A stretch of 21,153 bases of DNA from IMG/VR virus record IMGVR_UViG_3300035698_010917, positions 1 through 21,153 of that record. One strand, 5' to 3'. The DNA comes from a virus. The notes beneath the pieces are model-generated. The model searched no databases. It worked only from the letters and a program-made list of their open reading frames with translations, and was not told where the DNA came from. Within the stretch, counting starts at the first letter, position 1. The number at the start of each line of letters is the position of its first letter. Below are positions 5,895-19,764 of the stretch, one piece after another. The translations under genes were made by a program, and so were the position numbers.

Positions 5895-8684
5895 GTGACT
5901 GATCGCTCATCCCGCCCCGCGTCAACCCGCGATCTGGTTCCGCTGGCAGAGCGGATCGCCAATGCATGGAGCGTCCTACGGGGCGGGCCATTCAGCCCCG
6001 GCGTGCCGGTTCCGCCAACCACGTCTGAAGCCACCCAAGAGGCCGGGCCGCGTCGTTTTGCGTTTCCCGTCGGCGTTAACACCGTGTATGCGCCACGGCA
6101 AGAGTACCGGACGCAGACGCCGTTCCATCAACTGCGCAACCTAACGGCCCTGTACGACGTTGCGGCGATGTGTATCGCCGTGCGCGTCGAAGAGGTACAA
6201 GGGTTAGAGTGGTCAATCGTCGCCCATAACAAAAAGCGCCAGAGGGAGCTCCAGAACCTCTGCGACGACGTGCAGCACATCCTTATGCAGCCGGATCGCC
6301 GGGAAGAGTTCGACGCCTGGATCAGTATGGTGCTGTACGACGTGTTCAGCATTGACGCCTTGACCATCTTTCCCCGCCTTGACCTTGGCGGGCGCGTGCA
6401 TGCATGGGAAGTGATCGACGGATCGACCATTAAACCAATCCTCGACAGCCAAGGCCGCGTTGACGGCTATCAGCAGGTGTTGTACGGACTGCCGTTCGGC
6501 CAATACGGTGCGCCGACTCGCACGGGACGCACGGGACGCACGAAAGACGAAACTCACGAACTGGCCGTTGATTACGGACGCTATGAACTGATCTACCGCC
6601 CGCGCTGGCGTCGTACCTATACCCCGTACGGGTTTCCACCGGCGGAGTGGATCATCATGCGGGTCAATCAAGCGCTGCGTAAGCAGGCGATGGATCTGAG
6701 CTACTTCACCGACGGCAACATTCCAGCAATGCTCGTCAGTCCGCCCGACGGCATGATGGATACTGAGCAGATCCTTGCATTTGAGCAGGCATTTAACGCG
6801 GTGCTTGAGGGCGATCTTGCTCGTGGGCATCGGATTAAGTTTTTGCCGTGGAAGGGAGACGCGAAAGAACTGCGTCCCTTCAGTTACGAGACGAAGCTTG
6901 ACGATTGGATGATGCGGATTACGTGCGCCGCGTTCGGTGTTCCACCCAACGAACTGGGCTTTACCGACACGGTGAATAAAGCGTCGGCACAAGTACAGGA
7001 GGCGGTGAACGAGCGGCGCGGCCTGAAGCCAATCACGGGCTGGTTGGCCGATCTGATAAACTACTGGATGATCCGCTGGATTGAACGCCCGTACACGCCG
7101 GATCAGCCGGTCACACGGGCAATTTCCCTGCCTGGTCAACCCGCCCGTGTTGATGTGCCACTGGATCAACTGATCGGCTTTGCGTGGCGCTTTGGCGACA
7201 ACGAAGACAGAGCGCTGATGGCGTCGGTTGACGAAAAATACATCAATCTGGGCGTCATTGGCGCGGACGAGGTGCGCGTGATGCGCTACGGCGACGAGTT
7301 GGAAGGCCCGGCGCCCGGCGCACCCAAACCCGCTGCACCGCCCGTTACACCCGGCACACAGCCGCCCGCTTCGCCCGCTCCTGCACCGCAACTGCCAGCG
7401 CCGCCGGCTGCGCCAGTGTCCGACGCACCGCCAAAAATGGCCGATACATCGCCGGCGCTTGCGGCAATGGCAAAGGGCGCGTCGTATGCATCAGTGATTG
7501 TGGCGCTATGCCCGCCGCCGGCACTCGCACAGAGCATTGCCCAACGCGCCGCCCGTACGTACAGCCATTATGCCGAACCCGCCGGCGCCTTACACGTCAC
7601 CCTGGGCCGCTTTGGCGATGCGGCGACGCTTGCCCCGCAGTATGGCGATCTGTTAGGCGCACTCAATGCATTCCGATGGCCGCGCCCGCTTGCACTGCGC
7701 CTGAACGGACTGGGCGTGTTCGCACCAGGTGAAGATGGCGATACGCCCGTGTATGCGCCGGTCGATAGCGTTGACCTTGCGGCATTCCGTACGGCCTTTG
7801 TGACCCATATGGCGGATCGCGGCTTTCTGCTTGAAAGCGAACGCGGCTTTCTGCCGCATATGACCCTGGCATACGTGCCTGACAGTGCGCCGGTTGCGCT
7901 TACGGCGTCGCCGGATCTACGTTGGGATCACGACACCCTGACGCTGATGTTCGGCGGCGAACAATCAACCTGTTCGTTTCTGAACGGCGCAATGCTTCAG
8001 AAGCGCGACGAGGGCGACGATCCGCCCGATGTGACCGAGCGGCGCACGTTCGAATTGCAACTTGCCGCCGTCTTGACCCGCGCATTCGCGGCGCAGTCGA
8101 AACTGATTGAACGTGCGCTGGCGCCCGCCGATCCGCGTGAAAGCCTCAAGCAGCCCTCGCTCTGGACGCAGGCGCGTACGACGCTCTATCAGATGGTATT
8201 GCCGCTCTATGAGCAGATGGTCAAGGCCGGCGCACTGACAGCGGTCACGCTCATGCCGATCAATGTCGAATGGGGGCTGATCAACGGCGCTGCACTCGAA
8301 CGCGCGCGGGCAATGGCGATGGAACTAGCAACCACGTCAACCGAGACGAGCCGGGCACAAGTGGCGTCCCTCGTGGCCGATTGGATTGCCAACCCCACGA
8401 GCCGTCGCGATCTATTGCGGCAAGCGCGCGTCGTTTGGGATGACAACCGTTCCGAGATGACCGCTGTTACCGAAGTCACCCGGGCCTACGCCGAAGGCAA
8501 CCGCGCCGCATGGAGGCGGAGCAGCGTCATTCGGGGCATGCGTATCCGTACGGCCAGTGACGAGCGTGTATGCCCCGTATGCGGGCCGAAAGAGGGGCAA
8601 GTTGTCAGCCTGGAGAGCAACGAGATCCCGCCGTTCCATCCGCGTTGTCGCTGCTGGGTAACGCCAATCGTGAATGAGGAGTGA
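5895..8684 (+). CDS. Portal + 2H phosphodiesterase + MuF-type head morphogenesis fusion
   Basis: This 929-residue protein starts at GTG 5895, nine bases after AGGAG. Residues ~60-440 are a portal protein (the DNA channel at one head vertex), recognisable from LTALYDVAAMCIAVRVEEV, the EVIDGSTIKPILD strand, FGVPPNELGF and the QEAVNERRG helix. A proline/alanine linker spans ~470-515. Residues ~530-695 match the 2H phosphodiesterase (LigT-like) fold, with both catalytic motifs HVTL (567-570) and HMTL (655-658) 88 residues apart. Residues ~715-929 are a MuF/SPP1 gp7-like minor head domain ending in the CPVC...HPRCRC signature (C893, C896, H915, C918, C920). Portal-MuF proximity is common; a 2H enzyme between them is unusual. 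Its substrate is unknown: RNA 2',3' ends, cyclic oligonucleotides and NAD-derived cyclic phosphates are known for the superfamily. Confidence 0.9.
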   Translation: MTDRSSRPASTRDLVPLAERIANAWSVLRGGPFSPGVPVPPTTSEATQEAGPRRFAFPVGVNTVYAPRQEYRTQTPFHQLRNLTALYDVAAMCIAVRVEEVQGLEWSIVAHNKKRQRELQNLCDDVQHILMQPDRREEFDAWISMVLYDVFSIDALTIFPRLDLGGRVHAWEVIDGSTIKPILDSQGRVDGYQQVLYGLPFGQYGAPTRTGRTGRTKDETHELAVDYGRYELIYRPRWRRTYTPYGFPPAEWIIMRVNQALRKQAMDLSYFTDGNIPAMLVSPPDGMMDTEQILAFEQAFNAVLEGDLARGHRIKFLPWKGDAKELRPFSYETKLDDWMMRITCAAFGVPPNELGFTDTVNKASAQVQEAVNERRGLKPITGWLADLINYWMIRWIERPYTPDQPVTRAISLPGQPARVDVPLDQLIGFAWRFGDNEDRALMASVDEKYINLGVIGADEVRVMRYGDELEGPAPGAPKPAAPPVTPGTQPPASPAPAPQLPAPPAAPVSDAPPKMADTSPALAAMAKGASYASVIVALCPPPALAQSIAQRAARTYSHYAEPAGALHVTLGRFGDAATLAPQYGDLLGALNAFRWPRPLALRLNGLGVFAPGEDGDTPVYAPVDSVDLAAFRTAFVTHMADRGFLLESERGFLPHMTLAYVPDSAPVALTASPDLRWDHDTLTLMFGGEQSTCSFLNGAMLQKRDEGDDPPDVTERRTFELQLAAVLTRAFAAQSKLIERALAPADPRESLKQPSLWTQARTTLYQMVLPLYEQMVKAGALTAVTLMPINVEWGLINGAALERARAMAMELATTSTETSRAQVASLVADWIANPTSRRDLLRQARVVWDDNRSEMTAVTEVTRAYAEGNRAAWRRSSVIRGMRIRTASDERVCPVCGPKEGQVVSLESNEIPPFHPRCRCWVTPIVNEE
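6519..6542 (+). repeat. Short tandem 9-base repeat within portal gene
   Basis: CGCACGGGA occurs twice in tandem plus a partial third copy, encoding RTGRTGRT in a surface-loop-like stretch of the portal domain. It is the kind of repeat that can change copy number by slippage without breaking the frame. Confidence 0.5.
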
Positions 8685-10109: not shown

Positions 10110-10490
10110 ATGGCAACCCGCGTCTTAGCCACCGGACGAGGTATCGTCACCAACCTGATCACTGGCGCCGGCACAACCCCTGACTATATTGGTTGGGGAA
10201 CCGGTACAACCGAAGTCGCCGACGGTGACACCGCACTGCAAACCGCATCTGCCGAGTCGCGGGTGCAAGGCACGGCCACCCGCCAAACCACGACCACCAC
10301 GAATGACACGTTCCGCGTTGTCGGCACCCTGACGGCCAGCGCAACCCGCGCCATCACCGAGGCGGGCCTGTTCGACGCCATCACCAGCGGCGGGCTGTTC
10401 CTGCGCAGTGTGTTCCCGATGATCAACCTCAGTTCCGGCGACGCCATTCAGTTCACGTTTGATACCGAGTTCACGAGTACCACTACCTAA
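10110..10490 (+). CDS. Small beta-rich phage structural protein
   Basis: ATG 10110 lies nine bases after GGAGG. The 126-residue product is rich in threonine, glycine and alanine and nearly free of charged helices, as in virion proteins. Characteristic pieces are DYIGWGTGTTEVADGDTAL, ESRVQGTATRQTTTTTNDTF and RAITEAGLFDAITSGGLFLR followed by GDAIQFTFDTEF. I recall this pattern from conserved small phage tail-associated proteins, usually next to tail fibre genes, but cannot name the family. The next gene starts at the base after its stop, so the two are almost certainly co-translated and probably partners. Confidence 0.7.
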   Translation: MATRVLATGRGIVTNLITGAGTTPDYIGWGTGTTEVADGDTALQTASAESRVQGTATRQTTTTTNDTFRVVGTLTASATRAITEAGLFDAITSGGLFLRSVFPMINLSSGDAIQFTFDTEFTSTTT

Positions 10491-13400
10491 ATGGCGTTAC
10501 TCGCGTACACATCCGGCACCCCGAGCGCGGCAACGAGTATTGTCGTTCCGACGCCGCCTGAAGCAGCACCGGGCATGATCCTGGTGCTGCATCTTGCGGT
10601 GCGCGGCAATGCGACAATTACCGCGCCGGCTGGATGGTCAACAGCGAGTAGTGTCAGTCATTTCAGCACATCTGGCACCGGGCAACTTCGCAGTATCATC
10701 TACACGCGAATCCTTGCCGTCAACGAACCGGCCTCACATACCGTTTCGTTTAGCGCATCCACCGCTGCGACCTGGAACCAGTTAGTATGCGACGCCATTG
10801 ATACCGGCATTGTGACTGATTCGGTTATCAGCGTGTCTAGCAGCGGGACAAGCCTCACCGCCCCGAGTATCACCAGTAGCGTCGCGCAGCAGATCGTGTT
10901 GACGTTTGTCGCCGGCGACACGAGCAGCGCGCTCACTCTGCCGCAAGACGTTGGGCAGGTTGCCGCGCAGCAGCGCAGCGGACTCCCCAATGGAAACAGC
11001 ATGACAACGGCGGTTGGGCATCAAATTGTCACGAGCGGCGCCGCAGGCGGCAATGTCACCGTCGGAACGTCAACCTTGGGCATTGTGCAGCGCGTCGTGT
11101 TGCGGCGCGCCCCGATGCGCGCAACCGTAACAGGAACCATCGGATGTCCGTACGCCTGTTCGTCGGCAAACCAGATCCTTGAGACGGCAACCAACGAGAT
11201 CCGACTCTTCGGCACATTCCGTGCCAGCGACTCCGGTCGGCTGAGTAGTGCCGTTGCCGATATGAGCGGCGGCAGCTCATCACAGCAAGTGCGCCTGGTG
11301 ATTGCCAAAACGGAAGTCATCAGCGGCGAAGATCGCCCAACACGCATTCTCGGCGCCGGGTCGGTTGTCACGATCACTGCGAACCAGAGCCGCAGTGATG
11401 TGTCATTGCCCGTGCCTGATGTTGCGCTGATCCGAGGGAAGCGCTACGTGCTAGGCGTCTGGTACGCCGGAACGGGGAACGCCCGCATTCATAGCGAGTG
11501 GCGCATGGCAACGCGCTATTCCATGAACGCCTCGTTTTCCTCAACCAATGCGCCGCCCGCAACATTCACGCAAAACAGTTTTCTGACGAACCTGCCGAAG
11601 CTCGTGGCAACCTACGCGGTTGACGCTGCCGATCCGGCTGTCAGTGGCTACGGCTCACTGACACCAGGCCAACCGGCCGCAAGCGACTTCGTGACAAACC
11701 CTGATGCCACGGCGCATCAGTGGCGCAGCGATACGCCGATCTTACCGTCGTTCGTGAATCGCGTGCTGCGCTATCAGCGCTACGACTGGAACCAGATCGA
11801 AAGCAGCCAGGGCAGCTACAGCTTCGGAACCATTCGATCCAACATTCTGAGCGCACGCAGCGCGGGACAGAAATTCGGGTTGCGTGTCCGTGCCCGTATC
11901 ACCGGCTGGGTGCTGCCGTCCTATCTCTCAGGTCAGAGCTGGAATGACAGCTTCTTTCGGGCGCGCCATGTTGCGCTGCACACCGCACTGCGCAACTACG
12001 TGCTTGCGGAAGGGCTGATCAACGATCTCATCCTGGTCGATATTGACGGGATCGGCAACTACGGCGAATGGGCCGGCGGCGATAGCGGCAACTACAGCGC
12101 GGCGATCGAAGAAGAAATCATTCAGAGCGTCCTTGACGTGTGGCAGGGCTACATCCCTGAGATCAGCCTGCCCATGTTCGTGGTACGGCGCTTCCGCTGG
12201 GATTTTATCCGCGCATTGCCCGAGCCAGTGGGCTTTCGCTGCGATATTTGGGGCGCTGAAGGCTGTGGCTGGCTCACATCGGGCCAACACGGCCTTGCGT
12301 ACCGCGCCGACCTCACGCGCGCGCCGGAAGAGGGCAAATGGATCGGCGGCGAAATTGACTGGGGGCTGAATGGCACCGTCAGTGCCGATACGCTGCGTAT
12401 CAACAACTGGTTCTTTCGGCCACATACGGTCAGTGACGGCAACTGGAAGGGGCAGACCTTCAACGGCTTCAGTGGCGCGGATCAGGTCAAAATCCTTGAT
12501 GCGTTCCGTATGCTCGGCTATCGCTTTGCCGTGACACGGGTTGACCGGCCTACAACCGTCGAAATCGGACAGGCGCAGCGGTGGACGTTCCATTGGAGTA
12601 ACGTCAATCGCGGCCTGCCGGTCTGGCGCGATGATTGGGCCGTGCAACTCCGATTGCGTAACAGCGGCGGAACCGTCGTCTGGACAGACACACTCGACAC
12701 TGATATTCGGTCACTCTGGACAACGGGAGCGCGGGCGCATGTGCGCTCCGAAACGATCACCCTCAGTGGCATTCCGGCCGGAACATATACGGCGGAACTG
12801 CGGATCGTGGCCGGCAGTGAAGCGCCGAAAACGATGGCAAACAGCAGCCGCAATAGCGACGGCGCGTACCCGCTCGGCAGTGTGACCGTTACCGAGTCGG
12901 GCGGTACAACCACACCGCTTACCCTGGCAACGCACGTCACATCAGCGCCGGAACGGGCGCGCAGCATCTCGTTCCGGCGCCGCGTGGCCGGACTACTGCG
13001 TGGCCTACGCTTAACCGGCGGCGACTCGATTGTAGGAACCAACAGCCTTCAGACGATACACGGCACCTTCAGTACGCCTGTTGTCACCGGCAATCAGACG
13101 GTAGCAGGCCTGCCGTTTGCGCCCAAACTCGTGTTCTTTTCGTGGAATGCGCTGCCCAACCCGTCGAACAGTACCAGTTCGCAAGGCGGGCAAGGGTGGA
13201 TGCACGTCGGCGGGGAAGCGACCATCTATGCAGCGCATGCCGCCAACGGCACGGAAACCGCACAGCGCGTCCTCTCTACGGCCTGCCTCGTTACCGTGTT
13301 ACCTGATCAGACCATTACCTCGCAGGCCTCCTATGTATCGCTGAACGCCGACGGCTTCACGATCAACTGGACGACGGCGCCCGCGTCGGCTTATGCCGTC

Positions 13401-15563
13401 GCGTATCTTGCGCTGGGCGGCGACGATCTGACCAACATCACCAGCGGCACGTTCAGTTCGACCTCAACACCGCAATCCGGCAGTACGTCATTTGAACCGG
13501 ATGCCATTCTGCTGCTTGGCTCGGATAACAACATCAACGGAACGACGCCGAACGGTCAAATCATTCGCGGCACAATCCTGGGCACGAGCAACCGGCACAC
13601 CACGAGTGCGCGCAAGGTGCGCCCGGCAGACGGCTCTGCCGCCGCGTCCGGCCTGATTAGCACAGCGGCGTACGTCGGCGCGCGCGGTACGTCGTCAGAT
13701 ACGGTCTGGGATGTAACAGCCATCAGCGGATCGGGTTTCACCCTGACCCGCACGAGCGGATCGCGCGGTATTCATGCGGCGTGGCTGGCATTCGACGGCG
13801 TACGGGTTGCACGCGGAACGATTGTGCAGCCGACAAGTACGGGCAACCAGGTTATCACCGGGCTAGGCTTCCGCCCGCTGGCAATGATTATTGACAGTGG
13901 CGACAAGGCAACAACGAACGCCTATACCGCTGATGCCTACTATATGCACGGCATGACCGACTTCTTTGGGCAATCGGCGCACTGGTTCGCCGTCATCACC
14001 GGCAGTGTGAGCGTTATCGGCAACCGTACCCAGACCTTTAACCACGTCATTCAGTCGCATGGCCCAACCGCCAGCGGCAATCCACCGCGCTACGCCCAGG
14101 CGACCGTTGCCGGTACATCAGACGACGGTTTTACGCTCAACTGGAGCGAGGTCAATAGCACGCAGCGGCGGCATGGCTTCCTGGCATTCGGCCCAACCGA
14201 AGAGGGGACGACCACATGGCTGCGTACCTTGCGCGCTGCGATGAACACGCTGCACGCGGCGGCTCGCACGACGTGGCTTGACCGGCTGATTGCCATGACC
14301 GCCGAAACCGATCCTGCGATTGAACCAGGGCGCTATGTGCGGTCGCAATCTGATGCGCGGGCGTTCCCGAATGGCACGCTCGTTGATCGCCTGCGTAGCA
14401 CAACGATTACCGCGTCCGCTGCCTTCACGCAGACATTCCTTCGTACCCTCGTTGCTATTTTGGGCGTAATCGGGCGCGTACCCAGGCAGGTACAGGCGGT
14501 ACGGGACACGACAACGAACGCAACCGCGCGCAACCGCTACGCCTTCCCGCGCTTCATCGTCGCCAGTATGACCGCAACCGCCAGTGCCGTCGATTGGGTA
14601 GCATCGCTCGGGCGACGGGTGTTCATGCACGCGAACGGCAGAACGCGACTACTGATCAGCCGCCTCCAGGCCACACGATCGATACTCATTGCGTTGCGCC
14701 GCCCAACGACGGGCCAATTCTCGCGCGCGGTGCTTGATAGCGCATCGTCGCTGATTGACCGACTGCCGCTCATTCGGCCACGCGCCGTTCTTGCGGCGGC
14801 GGTCAGCCGACAACGCACGGTACAGCAGGCCGTTCGGCGCGTACTCATCCTAGCAAGCGCCCGTTTCCGACGCGGGCAAGATCTCCTCTTTGCCATCAGC
14901 GCCAGTGTTACGGCGAATGGACGCCGGTTCGTCACGGCGGCGCGCACATCGGCCACAAGCAGCGATGCCAGCGGCGTACGCGGTACATTCACCGCAAACG
15001 CACGCCGAATGGCGGCGCTTGCGGCATCTGCCGTACGCGCCGCCGTAACTGTGGGCGCGCGGCGATCGAGCAGCGTGTTCACCTCGACCCTCGTGCGCTT
15101 TGGGCAAACGATTGAACGCACCATTCGCGCCGCTGTTACAGCAGTTGCCGTGCGCAACGCACGCACCGACCGAACCCGCACGACGCCAGTAGACGCATCA
15201 GGCACGGCGCAGCGCACGGCACAGCCGATGATTGCGACAGCCCTGAACGCAGCGGCAACACTGGCCGGGCGCATCATCACGCAAACCCGTGCGACTGTAA
15301 CCGTCCTCGCAGGACAGGCACGGCGCACAACGCTTGCGCGGCGGCTTGCTACGGCGCTTACGGGCGCATCGTGGCGCGTCCTGGTTGCCTATCAGGATGC
15401 AACGTCCATGACCGCAGGCGGGCGCGTACAGCGCACAAGTGCGCTACGGCGCCGGGTAACACTGACGCTTGCGCCGACGATTGCCGCCGTGCTTGATGCG
15501 CTGTCGCGGCTCATTCGCGGCAATATTGACGGGCCGGGCGACGGCACGATCTGGGGAGGCTGA
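10491..15563 (+). CDS. Giant receptor-binding/tailspike-like protein with glycosidase-like core
   Basis: This 1690-residue protein starts directly after the previous TAA. Residues 1-210 are a threonine/serine-rich beta domain. Residues ~385-780 resemble the DUF4874/DUF4832 glycoside-hydrolase-like pair: LRYQRYDWNQIESSQGSYSF (~424), LILVDIDGIGNYGEW (~513), then an Ig-like part around WTFHWSNVNRGLPVWRDDW and IPAGTYTAELRIV. Residues ~856-1236 contain three tandem beta-domain copies. Residues ~1240-1690 are arginine/alanine/threonine-rich with no lysine or cysteine. It most likely forms a fibre or spike that binds, and may cut, a surface polysaccharide; the catalytic residues are not certain. No intramolecular chaperone domain of known type is visible at the C-terminus. 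Confidence 0.8.
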   Translation: MALLAYTSGTPSAATSIVVPTPPEAAPGMILVLHLAVRGNATITAPAGWSTASSVSHFSTSGTGQLRSIIYTRILAVNEPASHTVSFSASTAATWNQLVCDAIDTGIVTDSVISVSSSGTSLTAPSITSSVAQQIVLTFVAGDTSSALTLPQDVGQVAAQQRSGLPNGNSMTTAVGHQIVTSGAAGGNVTVGTSTLGIVQRVVLRRAPMRATVTGTIGCPYACSSANQILETATNEIRLFGTFRASDSGRLSSAVADMSGGSSSQQVRLVIAKTEVISGEDRPTRILGAGSVVTITANQSRSDVSLPVPDVALIRGKRYVLGVWYAGTGNARIHSEWRMATRYSMNASFSSTNAPPATFTQNSFLTNLPKLVATYAVDAADPAVSGYGSLTPGQPAASDFVTNPDATAHQWRSDTPILPSFVNRVLRYQRYDWNQIESSQGSYSFGTIRSNILSARSAGQKFGLRVRARITGWVLPSYLSGQSWNDSFFRARHVALHTALRNYVLAEGLINDLILVDIDGIGNYGEWAGGDSGNYSAAIEEEIIQSVLDVWQGYIPEISLPMFVVRRFRWDFIRALPEPVGFRCDIWGAEGCGWLTSGQHGLAYRADLTRAPEEGKWIGGEIDWGLNGTVSADTLRINNWFFRPHTVSDGNWKGQTFNGFSGADQVKILDAFRMLGYRFAVTRVDRPTTVEIGQAQRWTFHWSNVNRGLPVWRDDWAVQLRLRNSGGTVVWTDTLDTDIRSLWTTGARAHVRSETITLSGIPAGTYTAELRIVAGSEAPKTMANSSRNSDGAYPLGSVTVTESGGTTTPLTLATHVTSAPERARSISFRRRVAGLLRGLRLTGGDSIVGTNSLQTIHGTFSTPVVTGNQTVAGLPFAPKLVFFSWNALPNPSNSTSSQGGQGWMHVGGEATIYAAHAANGTETAQRVLSTACLVTVLPDQTITSQASYVSLNADGFTINWTTAPASAYAVAYLALGGDDLTNITSGTFSSTSTPQSGSTSFEPDAILLLGSDNNINGTTPNGQIIRGTILGTSNRHTTSARKVRPADGSAAASGLISTAAYVGARGTSSDTVWDVTAISGSGFTLTRTSGSRGIHAAWLAFDGVRVARGTIVQPTSTGNQVITGLGFRPLAMIIDSGDKATTNAYTADAYYMHGMTDFFGQSAHWFAVITGSVSVIGNRTQTFNHVIQSHGPTASGNPPRYAQATVAGTSDDGFTLNWSEVNSTQRRHGFLAFGPTEEGTTTWLRTLRAAMNTLHAAARTTWLDRLIAMTAETDPAIEPGRYVRSQSDARAFPNGTLVDRLRSTTITASAAFTQTFLRTLVAILGVIGRVPRQVQAVRDTTTNATARNRYAFPRFIVASMTATASAVDWVASLGRRVFMHANGRTRLLISRLQATRSILIALRRPTTGQFSRAVLDSASSLIDRLPLIRPRAVLAAAVSRQRTVQQAVRRVLILASARFRRGQDLLFAISASVTANGRRFVTAARTSATSSDASGVRGTFTANARRMAALAASAVRAAVTVGARRSSSVFTSTLVRFGQTIERTIRAAVTAVAVRNARTDRTRTTPVDASGTAQRTAQPMIATALNAAATLAGRIITQTRATVTVLAGQARRTTLARRLATALTGASWRVLVAYQDATSMTAGGRVQRTSALRRRVTLTLAPTIAAVLDALSRLIRGNIDGPGDGTIWGG
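13058..14198 (+). repeat. Three tandem copies of a ~120-130-residue beta domain
   Basis: At protein level, copies run ~856-977, ~983-1103 and ~1107-1236. Each opens with G-T/S-F/I...TGNQ-like and a G-L/S-x-F-x-P strand (VAGLPFAPKLVFF, SFEPDAILLLG, ITGLGFRPLAMII). Each closes with DGFT/SGFT plus L/INW or LTR and a final strand AYLALGG, AWLAFDG or GFLAFGP. The DNA is diverged, so this is an old duplication. Copy 2 has lost part of the opening TGNQ motif. Confidence 0.75.
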
Positions 15564-15564
15564 C

Positions 15565-15900
15565 ATGGCACTGAGCGACGCCGTACAAAACGCCAGGCTC
15601 CCGGTGCAACGCATCACCTGGCGACGCCGGGGCGGAAGTGGCAACCCGCAAAACCTCAGTGGCACCACCCTGAGCGGCATCATCATTGAGCCGAATACCG
15701 AGACGATCCGCCCGATCACCGGCACACTTGCGATTGTCGGCGCTGGCACGTCAGGCGAGTTTGATTGGAGCTACAGCGCGGCAGATGTCGCACTGGCGGG
15801 ATCGTTCCGCGTGCAGTTCACGGCAACCTACCCCGATCTGCGTCGGGCGAACACGTTTGTCACGGTCTGGACAGTCTACCGGGACGAGGGGGTGCAATAA
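15565..15900 (+). CDS. Small structural protein, BppU-like partner of the spike
   Basis: The ATG at 15565 follows GGGGAGG by five bases and lies just past the spike gene's stop; longer in-frame starts inside the spike gene are discarded. The 111-residue product has the pattern PVQRITWRRRGG...LSGTTLSGIIIEP...ETIRPITGTLAIV...GEFDWSYSAADVALAGSFRVQF TATYPD, a beta-sandwich layout I associate with BppU-like baseplate or fibre-attachment proteins. It may cap the spike or attach it to the tail. Confidence in a structural role is fair; the family name is tentative. Confidence 0.65.
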   Translation: MALSDAVQNARLPVQRITWRRRGGSGNPQNLSGTTLSGIIIEPNTETIRPITGTLAIVGAGTSGEFDWSYSAADVALAGSFRVQFTATYPDLRRANTFVTVWTVYRDEGVQ

Positions 15901-15951: not shown

Positions 15952-18159
15952 ATGACGATTACGAAGAGTGACAAAGAAGAGATTGAGGGGAACCTCTGCC
16001 GACTACCAAGCGGCCTGTTTGGGCCATGCGACGCGGCGGGGGAGGAAGAGCCGAAAGAAGACGAGGCGCTGTCACCTGAGGCGCTGATGGACGCTATCAA
16101 GGATATCCCGGGCGACGAGCGCGATGCGAACCTGGAGTCCGTTGCGGCAGAACTCGGCGTCAACAACAACCTGCTGTACGCACTGGATGAGCTGAAAGAC
16201 CCCGAAGAGCCAATCACGCCGTCGCCGGAAAACGCCGCTGCGCTGACCGAGGCAGGCCTTGCGACGATGAACGAGGACGGCAGCGCATCACTCACCGACG
16301 CAGGGCGGGCGCTCGTCCTTGCCGCCGCGACGGGCGACACTGCCGCCGCAGACGCCGTGCTGAACGGGAAGAGTGAAAGCGCTAGCGACGCCCCGGCCAC
16401 AGAGGGCGGCGAGGCGGCAAGGACGAGCGCCGAACCTGCCGGCAGTCTTACGCCCGCAGGTGCAACGGCGGAAGCAGAAGTCGCCGCCGAAGAGGAAGAG
16501 CCAAAAGGCGGCGGAGGCGGAGGCGGAGGCGGCGGAGGTGACGAGCCGCCCAGTCAGGAAGTGGAAACCACGAACCGCAATACCGTAGCCGATGCGCTGG
16601 AAATCGACCGCAACGCAATCGGCGCACTGCAAACGGCGTTCACGGGCGGCGCTGTGGGCGGGCCGGAAGCCGACGTAGCACGGCAGCTCGGCTTGCTTGA
16701 CGATGCGGGGCAACCGACGCCGGCGGGCGTGCGCTTTATCGCGGCGGCAACCGTCGGCAACCTCTCGGATGCCCGTTCCGCCTTGACTGCGGCGCAAGGG
16801 CAGGCACCGGGGCCGGGGGATACCGACAAACTCATGATGGGCATGGCGATCACGAGGACGGACGATGATCAGCGCATCGTCTACGGCTATGCCAGCTCGG
16901 AAGACCTCGACAGTCAGCCCGGCGTCTGGCACGGCAAGGCGTACGTCGGTGATGTGGTTGACGCTAATGCCATTAACGCGGCGCTGCCGGAGTACCTAGA
17001 ATTTGCGAACGTCCGCGAAATGCACGGCAATAGCGCCGTCGGCGTAGCGGTACACGCCGAACTCATTCCCGGCGATGTGATTGTAACCATCAACGGCAAA
17101 GAGCGCACGCTGCGCAACCCGCTCTACATCGGCGTCAAGGTGGTAGACGATAGCGCCTGGAAAAAGGTCAAGGAAGGCGTTTACAAAGGATTCTCCATTG
17201 GCGGCAAGGTCATCCGAGCCGCCGTTGAAAAAATACAGGGCAGCGGCGCCTATCTGCGCCGTGTGACCAAACTGGCGCTACACGAGATCAGTCTCGTGGA
17301 TCGCCCGGCCAATCCCAACGCCCGGTTTGTGCTGATTAAGGCCGCCGGATTAGACGACACAGGAGACGACCTCATGACCGTTCTCGCCAATCTCCCGACG
17401 GAGGCAATCGACGCACTGGCAACGTCGCTTGTCGGAAAACTGCACGGCGATCTCAACAAAGCCGCCGATCCGCAGCGCATCATCAGTATGATCCAGGCGA
17501 TGCGCAATGAGAGTGAACTCAATGGCGACCTGGAAGGCGCGCAGATGCTCACGCAGGCCATTACGATGGTCATGCAAGCTGCCGAAGGCACCGACGAAGC
17601 GGACACGATGACGGAAACGGCGGATACTGAAACGGTGGAAATGGCGCAGCGCACGGGCGATCTCGGCAAGGCCGGGCGCGTCCTGAGCAAGAAGCGGATG
17701 CAGAACATGCAGGCCGTCTTGAAGTCGTTGCTGCAGTTGATGGCTGATGCCGGCGACGAACCGGCGCAGCGGGCCATGAAAGCGTATGGCATGCGCAAAG
17801 ACGATGCGGCGGAAAGTACCGACGCACTCGGCAAGGCGATCGGCACGGTACTAGAGCCCGCCTTTAGCGGCCTTTCGGACGTGCTGAACAAAATCCAATC
17901 GACGCAGGACGCCCATGCCTCGCAGATTGATGCGCTAAGTCGCCTGCCACGCGACGGCGGGCCGGCGGCGCGCAACGTGATTACCAAGTCCCTGGGCGCG
18001 GGCATCTTGGAAGAGCGCGTGCAGTCGCCCATCAGTGACGACGTCGAGAAAATGCGCGCCGAACTGGAGCGCGAAACCAACCCCCTTCGACGGGCGGAAT
18101 TACAACGGCGGCTTGCGAAGGCGTATCACCCGGCCATGAACGGATCGGGTTTGCAATAA
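15952..18159 (+). CDS. Prohead protease with N-terminal extension and C-terminal scaffold
   Basis: This 735-residue protein starts at ATG 15952 after CGGAG. Residues ~300-462 are an XkdF/HK97-like prohead serine protease: probable catalytic H358 in REMHGNSAVG and S415 in KGFSIGG, with the family-typical LALHEISLVDRPANPNA strand. Residues ~475-735 are acidic, helical and scaffold-like. Residues 1-295 are an unusual extension with C16 and C26 (LCRLPSGLFGPC), two winged-helix-like repeats (~40-139 and ~205-281) and an eleven-glycine linker (186-196). The protease trims scaffold and capsid protein inside the prohead. It lies directly before the major capsid gene, as in HK97-type phages. An internal start at 17374 probably makes the scaffold alone. 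Confidence 0.88.
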   Translation: MTITKSDKEEIEGNLCRLPSGLFGPCDAAGEEEPKEDEALSPEALMDAIKDIPGDERDANLESVAAELGVNNNLLYALDELKDPEEPITPSPENAAALTEAGLATMNEDGSASLTDAGRALVLAAATGDTAAADAVLNGKSESASDAPATEGGEAARTSAEPAGSLTPAGATAEAEVAAEEEEPKGGGGGGGGGGGDEPPSQEVETTNRNTVADALEIDRNAIGALQTAFTGGAVGGPEADVARQLGLLDDAGQPTPAGVRFIAAATVGNLSDARSALTAAQGQAPGPGDTDKLMMGMAITRTDDDQRIVYGYASSEDLDSQPGVWHGKAYVGDVVDANAINAALPEYLEFANVREMHGNSAVGVAVHAELIPGDVIVTINGKERTLRNPLYIGVKVVDDSAWKKVKEGVYKGFSIGGKVIRAAVEKIQGSGAYLRRVTKLALHEISLVDRPANPNARFVLIKAAGLDDTGDDLMTVLANLPTEAIDALATSLVGKLHGDLNKAADPQRIISMIQAMRNESELNGDLEGAQMLTQAITMVMQAAEGTDEADTMTETADTETVEMAQRTGDLGKAGRVLSKKRMQNMQAVLKSLLQLMADAGDEPAQRAMKAYGMRKDDAAESTDALGKAIGTVLEPAFSGLSDVLNKIQSTQDAHASQIDALSRLPRDGGPAARNVITKSLGAGILEERVQSPISDDVEKMRAELERETNPLRRAELQRRLAKAYHPAMNGSGLQ
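16507..16539 (+). repeat. GGC/GGA repeat encoding eleven glycines
   Basis: Eleven glycine codons in a row (a GGCGGA-type repeat) encode a flexible linker between the first winged-helix-like repeat region and the second. The tract is a likely slippage site, but every change by three bases stays in frame. Confidence 0.8.
17374..18159 (+). CDS. Internally initiated scaffold protein (in frame with protease)
   Basis: AGGAG (17361-17365) sits eight bases before ATG 17374, in frame with the protease gene and just after the protease domain ends (FVLIKAAGLDDTGDDL). Starting there gives a 261-residue acidic, helix-rich protein (MTVLANLPTEAIDALATSLV onward) with a basic tail ending YHPAMNGSGLQ. Phage lambda makes its scaffold Nu3 the same way, from an internal start in the protease gene C. 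The site quality and its exact position at the domain boundary are the evidence; expression is inferred. Confidence 0.65.
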   Translation: MTVLANLPTEAIDALATSLVGKLHGDLNKAADPQRIISMIQAMRNESELNGDLEGAQMLTQAITMVMQAAEGTDEADTMTETADTETVEMAQRTGDLGKAGRVLSKKRMQNMQAVLKSLLQLMADAGDEPAQRAMKAYGMRKDDAAESTDALGKAIGTVLEPAFSGLSDVLNKIQSTQDAHASQIDALSRLPRDGGPAARNVITKSLGAGILEERVQSPISDDVEKMRAELERETNPLRRAELQRRLAKAYHPAMNGSGLQ

Positions 18160-18219: not shown

Positions 18220-19764
18220 ATGAAGCGTTGGATTAATTCGGACGGCCAGGATGTGACTCAGCAGACCCTTGCCGAATGGCGCAAGGTAATGGGCGAAGAT
18301 GACGGCTACGATCTGCGCAAGGCGGCAACCGTCACCACCAGTAACGGCTTGGTCGCTTACGACCTCGAAGCGCCGGCCAAAAACCTGTACCCGGTACTCA
18401 CGCCGCTGCGCAATCGCATTCCGCGCGAGACGAGGGCCAGCGGCGCCGGTACGGCGGCAAATTGGAAAGTGGTGACGGCGATCAGCGGCGGTGGTGTGAG
18501 CAGCATGGGCTGGGTGCCGGAAGGCCAGCGCGCCCCGCGCATGACCATCAGCACCGAAGACAAGAGTGCTAGTTACGTTACCGTCGGCGAAGAGAGCGAC
18601 GTGACGTTTGAGGCCGAGTCGGCGGGGGCCGGGTTCGAGGACGTGCTTGCCACCAGCGGCATGCGGGCCTTGCAGTCCGTAATGATCAAAGAAGAGTACG
18701 CCATTCTGGGCGGCAACCGTAGCGTTGCACTCGGCAAGCCGGTCACGCCGACCGCAGCGGCAGCCGGTACGGGCGCGACGCTTCCCGCCGCAACCTACCT
18801 CGTGACCGTGTTTCCGTTGTCGCTTGAGGGCTATCTTGCGGCAACCGTAGTCGGCGGGATCAAGCGCGCTGAAACGATCACCGGGCAAGACGGCAAGACG
18901 TTCACCCTGAACGGCGGTTCCGGCATCGCCTCTGATGCCGCAAGCCAGGCCGCGACGCTCGGTCAGACCCTCAGTGTGTCGGTTCCGGTGGTACGCGGCG
19001 CCGTGGCCTACGCCTGGTTCATCGGCGCCAGTGGTGTGCAGACCTTGCAGGCCATCACCACGATCAACAGCGCGGCGTTCAGCGGGGCCATTATTGGCAG
19101 CACGCAGACCCTTGCCGCCATCACCGATCCGACGATTGACCGTTCGCGCAATGCCACGATGGCCTATGACGGCCTGCTGTACAGCGCGTTTGATGGTACA
19201 TCGCTGGCGTACTATCGTGCGCTGGGTACCGGCACGGCAGGCACCGGCACGGCGCTAACGGCCAGCAATCGCGGCTCGGTGGTAGAGATCGATGAAATGC
19301 TCAAGTCATTTTGGGATAGCTACCGGATCAGCCCCGAAGAGATCTACGTCTCGGCGCAAGAACTCCTGAGCATCACGAAGCTGGTACTGACGCAGAACAG
19401 CGCCAGCAGCCTGATCCGCTTTAATCTCGACGTGTCGAGCCAGGCACCGAGTGTGATGGGCGGGCAGATCGTGGGGACGTATTTCAACCCGTTCACCGTG
19501 AACGGCGGGCAAGTCATTCCAATCCGCCTGCACCCCAACCTGCCGGCCGGAACGCTGTTCTGCTGGGCAGAGAACCTACCGGCCTACTACGAGTCGAACA
19601 ATGTCCCGCAAACGGCGCTCGTGCAGAACCGGCGTGATTACTACCAGATCAACTGGCAGCCCATCACCCGCGCCAATGAAACCGGCGTGTACTGCGAAAC
19701 GGTGTTGAAGATTTACGCCACGTTCGCGCTTGGCATCATTCACAACATCGCGCCGACCGCCTAG
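18220..19764 (+). CDS. HK97-type major capsid protein
   Basis: This 514-residue protein starts at ATG 18220, nine bases after AGGAG, 60 bases past the protease gene. After a helical N-terminal arm, LYPVLTPLRNRIPRET and the WVPEGQRAPRMTIS strand match HK97-like capsid proteins. The C-terminal part carries EEIYVSAQELLSITKLVL, GGQIVGTYFNPFTVNGGQVI and a strand-rich end. Residues ~180-300 form an extra Ig-like or fibronectin-like domain (LPAATYLVTVFPLSLEGY...VRGAVAYAWFIGASG), probably displayed on the capsid surface. It is longer than the minimal HK97 fold because of this insertion. It builds the icosahedral shell on the scaffold encoded upstream. Confidence 0.88.
   Translation: MKRWINSDGQDVTQQTLAEWRKVMGEDDGYDLRKAATVTTSNGLVAYDLEAPAKNLYPVLTPLRNRIPRETRASGAGTAANWKVVTAISGGGVSSMGWVPEGQRAPRMTISTEDKSASYVTVGEESDVTFEAESAGAGFEDVLATSGMRALQSVMIKEEYAILGGNRSVALGKPVTPTAAAAGTGATLPAATYLVTVFPLSLEGYLAATVVGGIKRAETITGQDGKTFTLNGGSGIASDAASQAATLGQTLSVSVPVVRGAVAYAWFIGASGVQTLQAITTINSAAFSGAIIGSTQTLAAITDPTIDRSRNATMAYDGLLYSAFDGTSLAYYRALGTGTAGTGTALTASNRGSVVEIDEMLKSFWDSYRISPEEIYVSAQELLSITKLVLTQNSASSLIRFNLDVSSQAPSVMGGQIVGTYFNPFTVNGGQVIPIRLHPNLPAGTLFCWAENLPAYYESNNVPQTALVQNRRDYYQINWQPITRANETGVYCETVLKIYATFALGIIHNIAPTA

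What the first reader, a model, noticed from the sequence alone, without database searches (positions are those of the whole stretch)
14213..15560. Lysine-free, arginine-rich ~450-residue C-terminus of the spike protein
Seen: from about residue 1240 to the end the protein is built from alanine, threonine, arginine, serine and valine, with about 15 % arginine by my count, few acidic residues, no cysteine, and no lysine at all (none in the last ~550 residues). Short patterns such as RAAVTAVAVR and ARRLATAL recur roughly every 20 residues. A similar short patch occurs before the triplicate domain (ERARSISFRRRVAGLLRGLR). This is unlike usual fibre tips. Possible roles: a helical stalk, a capsid/DNA contact, or binding to acidic host glycans. 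Strict choice of Arg over Lys may avoid a lysine-directed modification or proteolysis.
Basis: partly seen in the sequence, partly recalled or inferred. Interest (0 to 1): 0.6.

Follow-up and report, generated by a model that had tools for sequence, protein, structure and literature searches.

The report
Arginine-studded repeat tail of phage spike
The last 450 residues of this phage surface protein are a worn tandem repeat with an arginine about every nine residues and no lysine; a matching block in phages of soil actinobacteria keeps its arginines fixed while nearly everything around them changes, which suggests an arginine-lined shaft carrying the sugar-cutting part of the spike.

Summary
The reading frame is open and intact; residues 1241-1690 of the 1690-aa ORF (10491-15563) hold 66 Arg, 0 Lys and 0 Cys, net charge about +48. 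The Arg are spaced at 9.35 residues (0 of 5000 shuffles reach this power), half of an 18.7-residue unit. No relative of this protein was found, but prophages and phages of Streptomyces and other high-GC viral contigs carry ~580-620-residue arrays of an 18-residue, almost Lys-free unit (R period 18.35-18.7) in a matching slot. In viral contig L091 the neighbours match: the upstream gene is homologous (E 2e-12), the N-terminal domain weakly so (E 0.003), then the array, then a ~110-aa gene. In that family Arg at unit position 1 is invariant in 23 of 25 columns while the filler drifts (dN/dS about 0.7-0.9), with almost no length change. Best reading: a repeat shaft with Arg ladders joining the virion to an N-terminal adhesin and glycoside-hydrolase-like head (DUF4832). 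A profile of the actinophage unit does not recognise the window array significantly, so common descent of the arrays is inferred from position and period. I found no published description of the array.

The parts
10110..10490 (+). 126-aa Thr-rich protein (phrog_5417-like), first gene of the spike cassette
   Evidence: phrog_5417 E 1.3e-12; 42 % identical over 88 aa, E 2e-12, to the gene at the matching place in array phage contig L091
10491..15563 (+). 1690-aa spike protein carrying the finding
10491..11120 (+). residues 1-210: N-terminal adhesin-like domain
   Evidence: aligned to L091 2383-3084 (BLAST E 0.003; 0 of 300 shuffles reach the score, z 4.9); weaker to the L097-type N-terminus (z 2.3)
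11691..12824 (+). residues ~401-778: TIM-barrel-like region (GNYGEW motif at residues 522-527, candidate catalytic Glu 526) followed by DUF4832 (residues 651-778)
   Evidence: PF16116 32.8 bits against cut-off 29.2, E 7.6e-8; DUF4832 follows a TIM barrel in the active Pel hydrolase SIR_1591 (PMC12345266); barrel and catalytic residue inferred from the sequence only
12951..13010 (+). isolated Arg-rich patch, residues 821-840, resembling one repeat unit
   Evidence: read directly
13059..14210 (+). three ~125-residue beta-domain-like repeats (residues ~857-1240)
   Evidence: 25-26 % identity to the first copy; 35 % identical match in an Anaerolineae genome protein
14211..15560 (+). Lys-free array: about 24 degenerate ~18.7-residue units with Arg every ~9.35 residues
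15565..15900 (+). 111-aa protein directly after the array, at the place of the ~107-111-aa gene that follows the actinophage arrays
   Evidence: position and length only; sequence similarity not significant (hhalign E 0.076; z up to 1.7)

Best explanation
The segment is the C-terminal shaft of a virion-bound adhesin/depolymerase spike. About 24 copies of an ~18.7-residue unit stack into an extended repeat structure in which Arg falls at fixed places, forming one or two regular Arg ladders along the shaft. The filler (Ala, Thr, Val, Ser, Gly) only has to be small and can drift freely, while the Arg register and the length are kept. The shaft joins the virion (probably at its C-terminal side) to the N-terminal adhesin, the DUF4832 glycoside-hydrolase-like part and the triple repeat domain. 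Shown: composition, period, open frame, positional match to the actinophage arrays, invariance of Arg at unit position 1 in those arrays. Inferred: that the window array is the same kind of object, that it is a shaft, which end is anchored, and that the ladder is structural rather than only a charge.
For: Arg period 9.35, 0/5000 shuffles, half of the 18.35-18.7 period of the actinophage arrays. Same slot: the order phrog_5417-like gene, N-terminal domain, array, ~110-aa gene is shared with L091. Array proteins occur with unrelated N-terminal heads or as a stand-alone gene (L091, L096), while their C-terminal RW tail is conserved: a movable shaft with variable heads. In five colinear arrays 5 of 580 alignment columns hold a gap; Arg at unit position 1 is invariant in 23/25 columns, other unit positions 19-52 % invariant; array dN/dS 0.67-0.87 against 0.20-0.59 for the head. 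Hiyaa gp13, an annotated minor tail protein with a head homologous to that of one array protein, also carries a C-terminal basic repeat array (~20.3-residue Arg period) and lies among the head genes.
Against: A cyclic profile of the actinophage unit scores the window array at only z 0.8-2.5, and the unrelated residues 1-400 reach z 1.9-2.3 with the same models. The window Arg are evenly spaced (9.35) whereas the actinophage ones sit at positions 1 and 5 or 7 of 18. The conserved RW tail is missing. No structure model could be made, so 'shaft' rests on repeat logic. No relative of the window array was found in the collections searched, so selection on it could not be measured. The window sequence comes from one virus contig.
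Confidence: 0.55

Rival explanations
1. Electrostatic adsorber: the array is a flexible or loosely ordered cationic brush (about +48) that binds anionic envelope polymers of the host (teichoic-acid-like or acidic polysaccharide), holding the phage near the surface while the hydrolase cuts.
For: Net charge +48 over 435 residues and almost no acidic residues; all arrays are strongly cationic (50-77 basic against 1-13 acidic residues); several array carriers are prophages of Streptomyces, a Gram-positive host; it sits next to adhesin- and hydrolase-like domains.
Against: A charge-only role does not need an exact 18-residue register or Arg at one unit position invariant in 23/25 columns with hardly any Lys exchange; nearly gapless length conservation is unusual for a brush.
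Confidence: 0.25
2. Capsid- or DNA-facing anchor: the array is a capsid-bound (head-fibre) element or contacts packaged DNA, since its gene lies among the head genes.
For: The window gene lies between the portal and the protease and capsid-region genes; Hiyaa gp13 lies between major capsid protein and head-to-tail adaptor; Arg-rich composition.
Against: The N-terminal part has hydrolase- and adhesin-like domains that make sense outside the particle; other carriers place the array before terminase or portal, so position is not tied to capsid genes; part of the Hiyaa-type head occurs in annotated minor tail proteins of other phages.
Confidence: 0.12
3. Convergence: the window array is a low-complexity Arg/Ala/Thr stretch of this GC-rich phage, unrelated to the actinophage arrays and without a defined structure.
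For: The profile test is not significant; no homologue found.
Against: Arg periodicity beyond 5000 shuffles and beyond nearly all of 1164 comparable stretches; Lys-free beyond the composition of its neighbours; shared slot with the arrays.
Confidence: 0.08

Closest known systems
Actinophage Arg arrays found here (L074/L076, L077/L079, L078, L091, L096-L105); phrog_14065 (unknown function) matches the head of one and head plus part of the array of another
   Same: C-terminal, about 570-625 residues, ~18-residue units, Arg-rich, 0-1 Lys, few acidic residues, adhesin-like head before it (mostly), ~110-aa gene after it where examined, near the head genes
   Different: Those have Arg at unit positions 1 and 5 or 7 and a conserved RW...GSRW tail; the window has evenly spaced Arg, a less regular unit and no such tail; unit profile not significant
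Streptomyces phage Hiyaa gp13 / Galactica gp11, annotated minor tail proteins
   Same: Head homologous to that of the L074 array protein (55-57 %), C-terminal basic repeat array, gene among the head genes
   Different: Repeat period ~20.3, Lys and Arg both used, more acidic residues
Glycoside hydrolases with a C-terminal DUF4832 (e.g. SIR_1591, Pel hydrolase, PMC12345266)
   Same: TIM-barrel-like region followed by DUF4832 in residues ~401-778
   Different: Here inside a phage spike with an added Arg array; substrate unknown

Membership tests
Actinophage 18-residue Arg-array proteins | Arg periodicity of ~18.4-18.7 residues or a harmonic | tested here: met
   9.35 = half of 18.7
Actinophage 18-residue Arg-array proteins | Lys (almost) absent, few acidic residues | tested here: met
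   0 of 66 Arg+Lys residues is Lys
Actinophage 18-residue Arg-array proteins | Unit profile R1...L5.R/L7.A9... or R1...R5.L7...L17 | tested here: not met
   z 0.8-2.5 against shuffles, not better than control segment 1-400
Actinophage 18-residue Arg-array proteins | Conserved C-terminal RW...RW...GSRW tail | tested here: not met
   Window ends ...RLIRGNIDGPGDGTIWGG; tail conserved in the others
Actinophage 18-residue Arg-array proteins | Gene order: phrog_5417-like gene, adhesin head, array, ~110-aa gene | tested here: met
   5417-like gene E 2e-12, head E 0.003, z 4.9; last gene by position and length only; compared with L091, the one array locus in which the whole order was examined
Left-handed beta-helix (hexapeptide repeats, 18 residues per coil) | [LIV]-[GAED]-x2-[STAV]-x hexads | tested here: inconclusive
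   6-residue period of Ala and/or Val/Ile/Leu in three of four actinophage arrays, not in the window; no Pfam match for the arrays
Alpha-helical coiled-coil stalk | 3.5/3.6-residue hydrophobic period with heptads or hendecads | tested here: inconclusive
   Weak 100-degree moment (z 2.4) in the window, none at 170 degrees, but Arg at i+4 absent and no heptad peak
DUF4832 (PF16116) | Score above Pfam's gathering cut-off | tested here: met
   32.8 against 29.2 bits, residues 651-778
DUF4832 glycoside hydrolase | Hydrolytic activity | not testable with these tools
   candidate Glu 526 by motif only
DNA-binding basic protein (protamine-like) | Binds DNA in the virion | not testable with these tools
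   none

The most novel reading that the evidence does not exclude
An undescribed class of phage fibre shaft: a Lys-free tandem repeat of ~18 residues whose only strictly kept feature is an Arg ladder, shared by phages of Actinomycetota and by this phage (possibly of Chloroflexota), moving between unrelated adhesin heads while its filler sequence evolves under weak constraint.
Probability: 0.4. Interest if true: 0.65.

Novelty: new variant of a known kind. Interest (0 to 1): 0.5.

Why it matters
Phage fibres need long shafts, and the known shaft solutions (coiled coils, triple beta-helices, collagen-like repeats) are few. A shaft defined by an Arg ladder with free-running filler would explain why such parts escape homology searches, gives a simple composition-and-period rule for finding them in unannotated phage proteins, and offers a repeat for protein design. 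It would also mark the N-terminal parts of these proteins as the exchangeable host-recognition heads, the reverse of the usual order in tail fibres.

Tried and rejected
Frame-error artefact: rejected. Direct homologues by tblastn in phages, by peptide patterns in viral contigs and in neighbouring-phage records and genomes: none; some of these searches mask low-complexity sequence or cannot show a true negative. Two larger genome searches failed on the server. A synthetic consensus probe gave nothing. EM on the window alone gave no clear unit, so the unit was learnt from actinophage arrays. Alignment of overlapping array segments collapsed and was redone with non-overlapping ones. Pfam, PHROGs and PDB searches of the window array: no usable match; of the actinophage arrays: no Pfam or PDB match. 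N-terminal head against the L097-type profile: hhalign not significant. Literature searches found nothing on this repeat.

Full report
Observation. The window is a 21,153-base IMG/VR virus record with amidase, terminase, portal, prohead protease, capsid-region and head-tail adaptor genes. ORF 10491-15563 encodes 1690 aa. Its residues 1241-1690 have 14.7 % Arg, 18 % Ala, 13.6 % Thr, no Lys and no Cys; the last Lys is residue 1139. The frame is genuine: no stop in frame against 17 and 11 in the other frames, codon preferences like those of the neighbours, and the next gene starts at 15565, right after the stop.

Not chance. The Arg positions have a spectral peak at 9.3 residues with power 17.5; none of 5000 shuffles reaches it. 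As an empirical control, 1164 Arg-rich 250-residue stretches from all loci held were scored: only the actinophage arrays described below, ORFs antisense to them, and this segment exceed 13. The absence of Lys has P 4e-11 under the K:R ratio of neighbouring genes and 1.5e-4 under that of the rest of the same protein.

The rest of the protein. Residues 651-778 match DUF4832 above cut-off. In a published case this domain follows a TIM barrel in an active Pel hydrolase (PMC12345266), and residues ~401-650 look like such a barrel, with GNYGEW at 522-527 (inference). Residues ~857-1240 are three ~125-residue repeats, a domain also found in a protein of an Anaerolineae genome. So the protein looks like a spike with an enzyme-like head; this part is inference from domain content.

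Relatives by position. No relative of the array was found directly. Following the gene at 18220-19764 (phrog_13692, taken here as the major capsid protein from its place after the protease) led to genomes; three Streptomyces records hold, upstream of terminase, proteins whose C-terminal ~600-650 residues are 18-residue units with Arg period 18.35-18.65, one Lys each and 4-8 acidic residues. A model of the unit trained on these three and on L091 scores 898 against 177-194 on shuffled training sets. Portal and tail-motif searches added L091 and L096-L105, whose arrays are of the same kind except L104, of which only the tail is held; several of these are near-copies of one another or of L077. Heads differ (phrog_14065 type, a second type in L077 and L097-L105, a further one in L078) or are separate genes (L091, L096), while the C-terminal RW tail is conserved.

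The link to the window. In L091 the order is: a gene 42 % identical to window 10110-10490 (E 2e-12), a gene weakly similar to window residues 1-140 (BLAST E 0.003; 0 of 300 shuffles), a further small gene, the array, and a ~110-aa gene. The window has the same order with the middle parts fused into one polypeptide. The window period of 9.35 is half of 18.7. But cyclic profiles of the actinophage unit give the window array only z 0.8-2.5, no better than a control segment, and the RW tail is absent. I therefore call the window array a positional counterpart that probably works like the actinophage arrays, not a proven member.

What is selected. Among five colinear arrays, 5 of 580 alignment columns hold a gap; Arg at unit position 1 is invariant in 23 of 25 columns, while other unit positions are invariant in 19-52 % of columns. 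By residue, 43 of 59 Arg columns are invariant (73 %) against 34 % for Ala, 33 % for Thr and 20 % for Val; Leu is kept in 56 %; dN/dS in the array is 0.67-0.87 against 0.20-0.59 in the head. This fits a scaffold whose Arg register matters and whose filler is nearly free, and it would explain why sequence similarity is lost between distant arrays. When an Arg is replaced, Lys is rarely used (2 of 27 replacements); since the window Arg codons are nearly all CGN, this may partly be codon reach. These measurements are on the actinophage arrays, not on the window.

Mechanism. I favour a repeat shaft with Arg ladders that connects the virion to an N-terminal head. Rivals are a cationic brush that binds anionic envelope polymers, a capsid or DNA contact (the gene lies among head genes, as does Hiyaa gp13), and convergence without structure.

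Comparison with the known. Streptomyces phages Hiyaa and Galactica carry an annotated minor tail protein with a head homologous to that of one array protein and a C-terminal basic repeat array of ~20.3 residues that uses both Lys and Arg. phrog_14065 covers part of this family with unknown function. No paper describing the array was found in the held library, which is not proof that none exists.

Noticed in passing
5895-8684: Portal protein fused to a 2'-5' RNA ligase (LigT)-like domain (residues 540-684) and a C-terminal MuF domain in one 929-aa ORF.
   Followed up: no
15952-18159: 735-aa protein with a prohead-protease domain only in the middle (residues ~290-600) and a long further N-terminal part; protease possibly fused to a scaffold or another domain.
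   Followed up: no
1200-2777: Amidase_2 endolysin with a second, weaker glucosaminidase-like region at residues 366-452, below Pfam's cut-off.
   Followed up: no
L076, L077, L078, L091, L096-L105: A family of actinophage proteins made largely of 18-residue Arg-ladder units, with no convincing Pfam match and only phrog_14065 of unknown function among PHROGs for two of those tested.
   Followed up: yes
L091 3566-5539; L096 9004-11289: Stand-alone array genes whose products start like MSRFGRGRPHAPITIPP, with the adhesin heads as separate upstream genes.
   Followed up: partly
L107 8516-11848: Hiyaa gp13: C-terminal ~20.3-residue repeats with Lys and Arg, Arg period power 20; gene between major capsid protein and head-to-tail adaptor.
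   Followed up: partly
L110 7202-9517: Anaerolineae genome protein with repeats similar to the spike's triplicate domain, no Arg array.
   Followed up: partly
L110 9520-13158: A minus-strand open frame of 1213 codons in the same Anaerolineae contig shows an Arg peak at period 9.2, power 12.1 over the whole frame; not read further.
   Followed up: no
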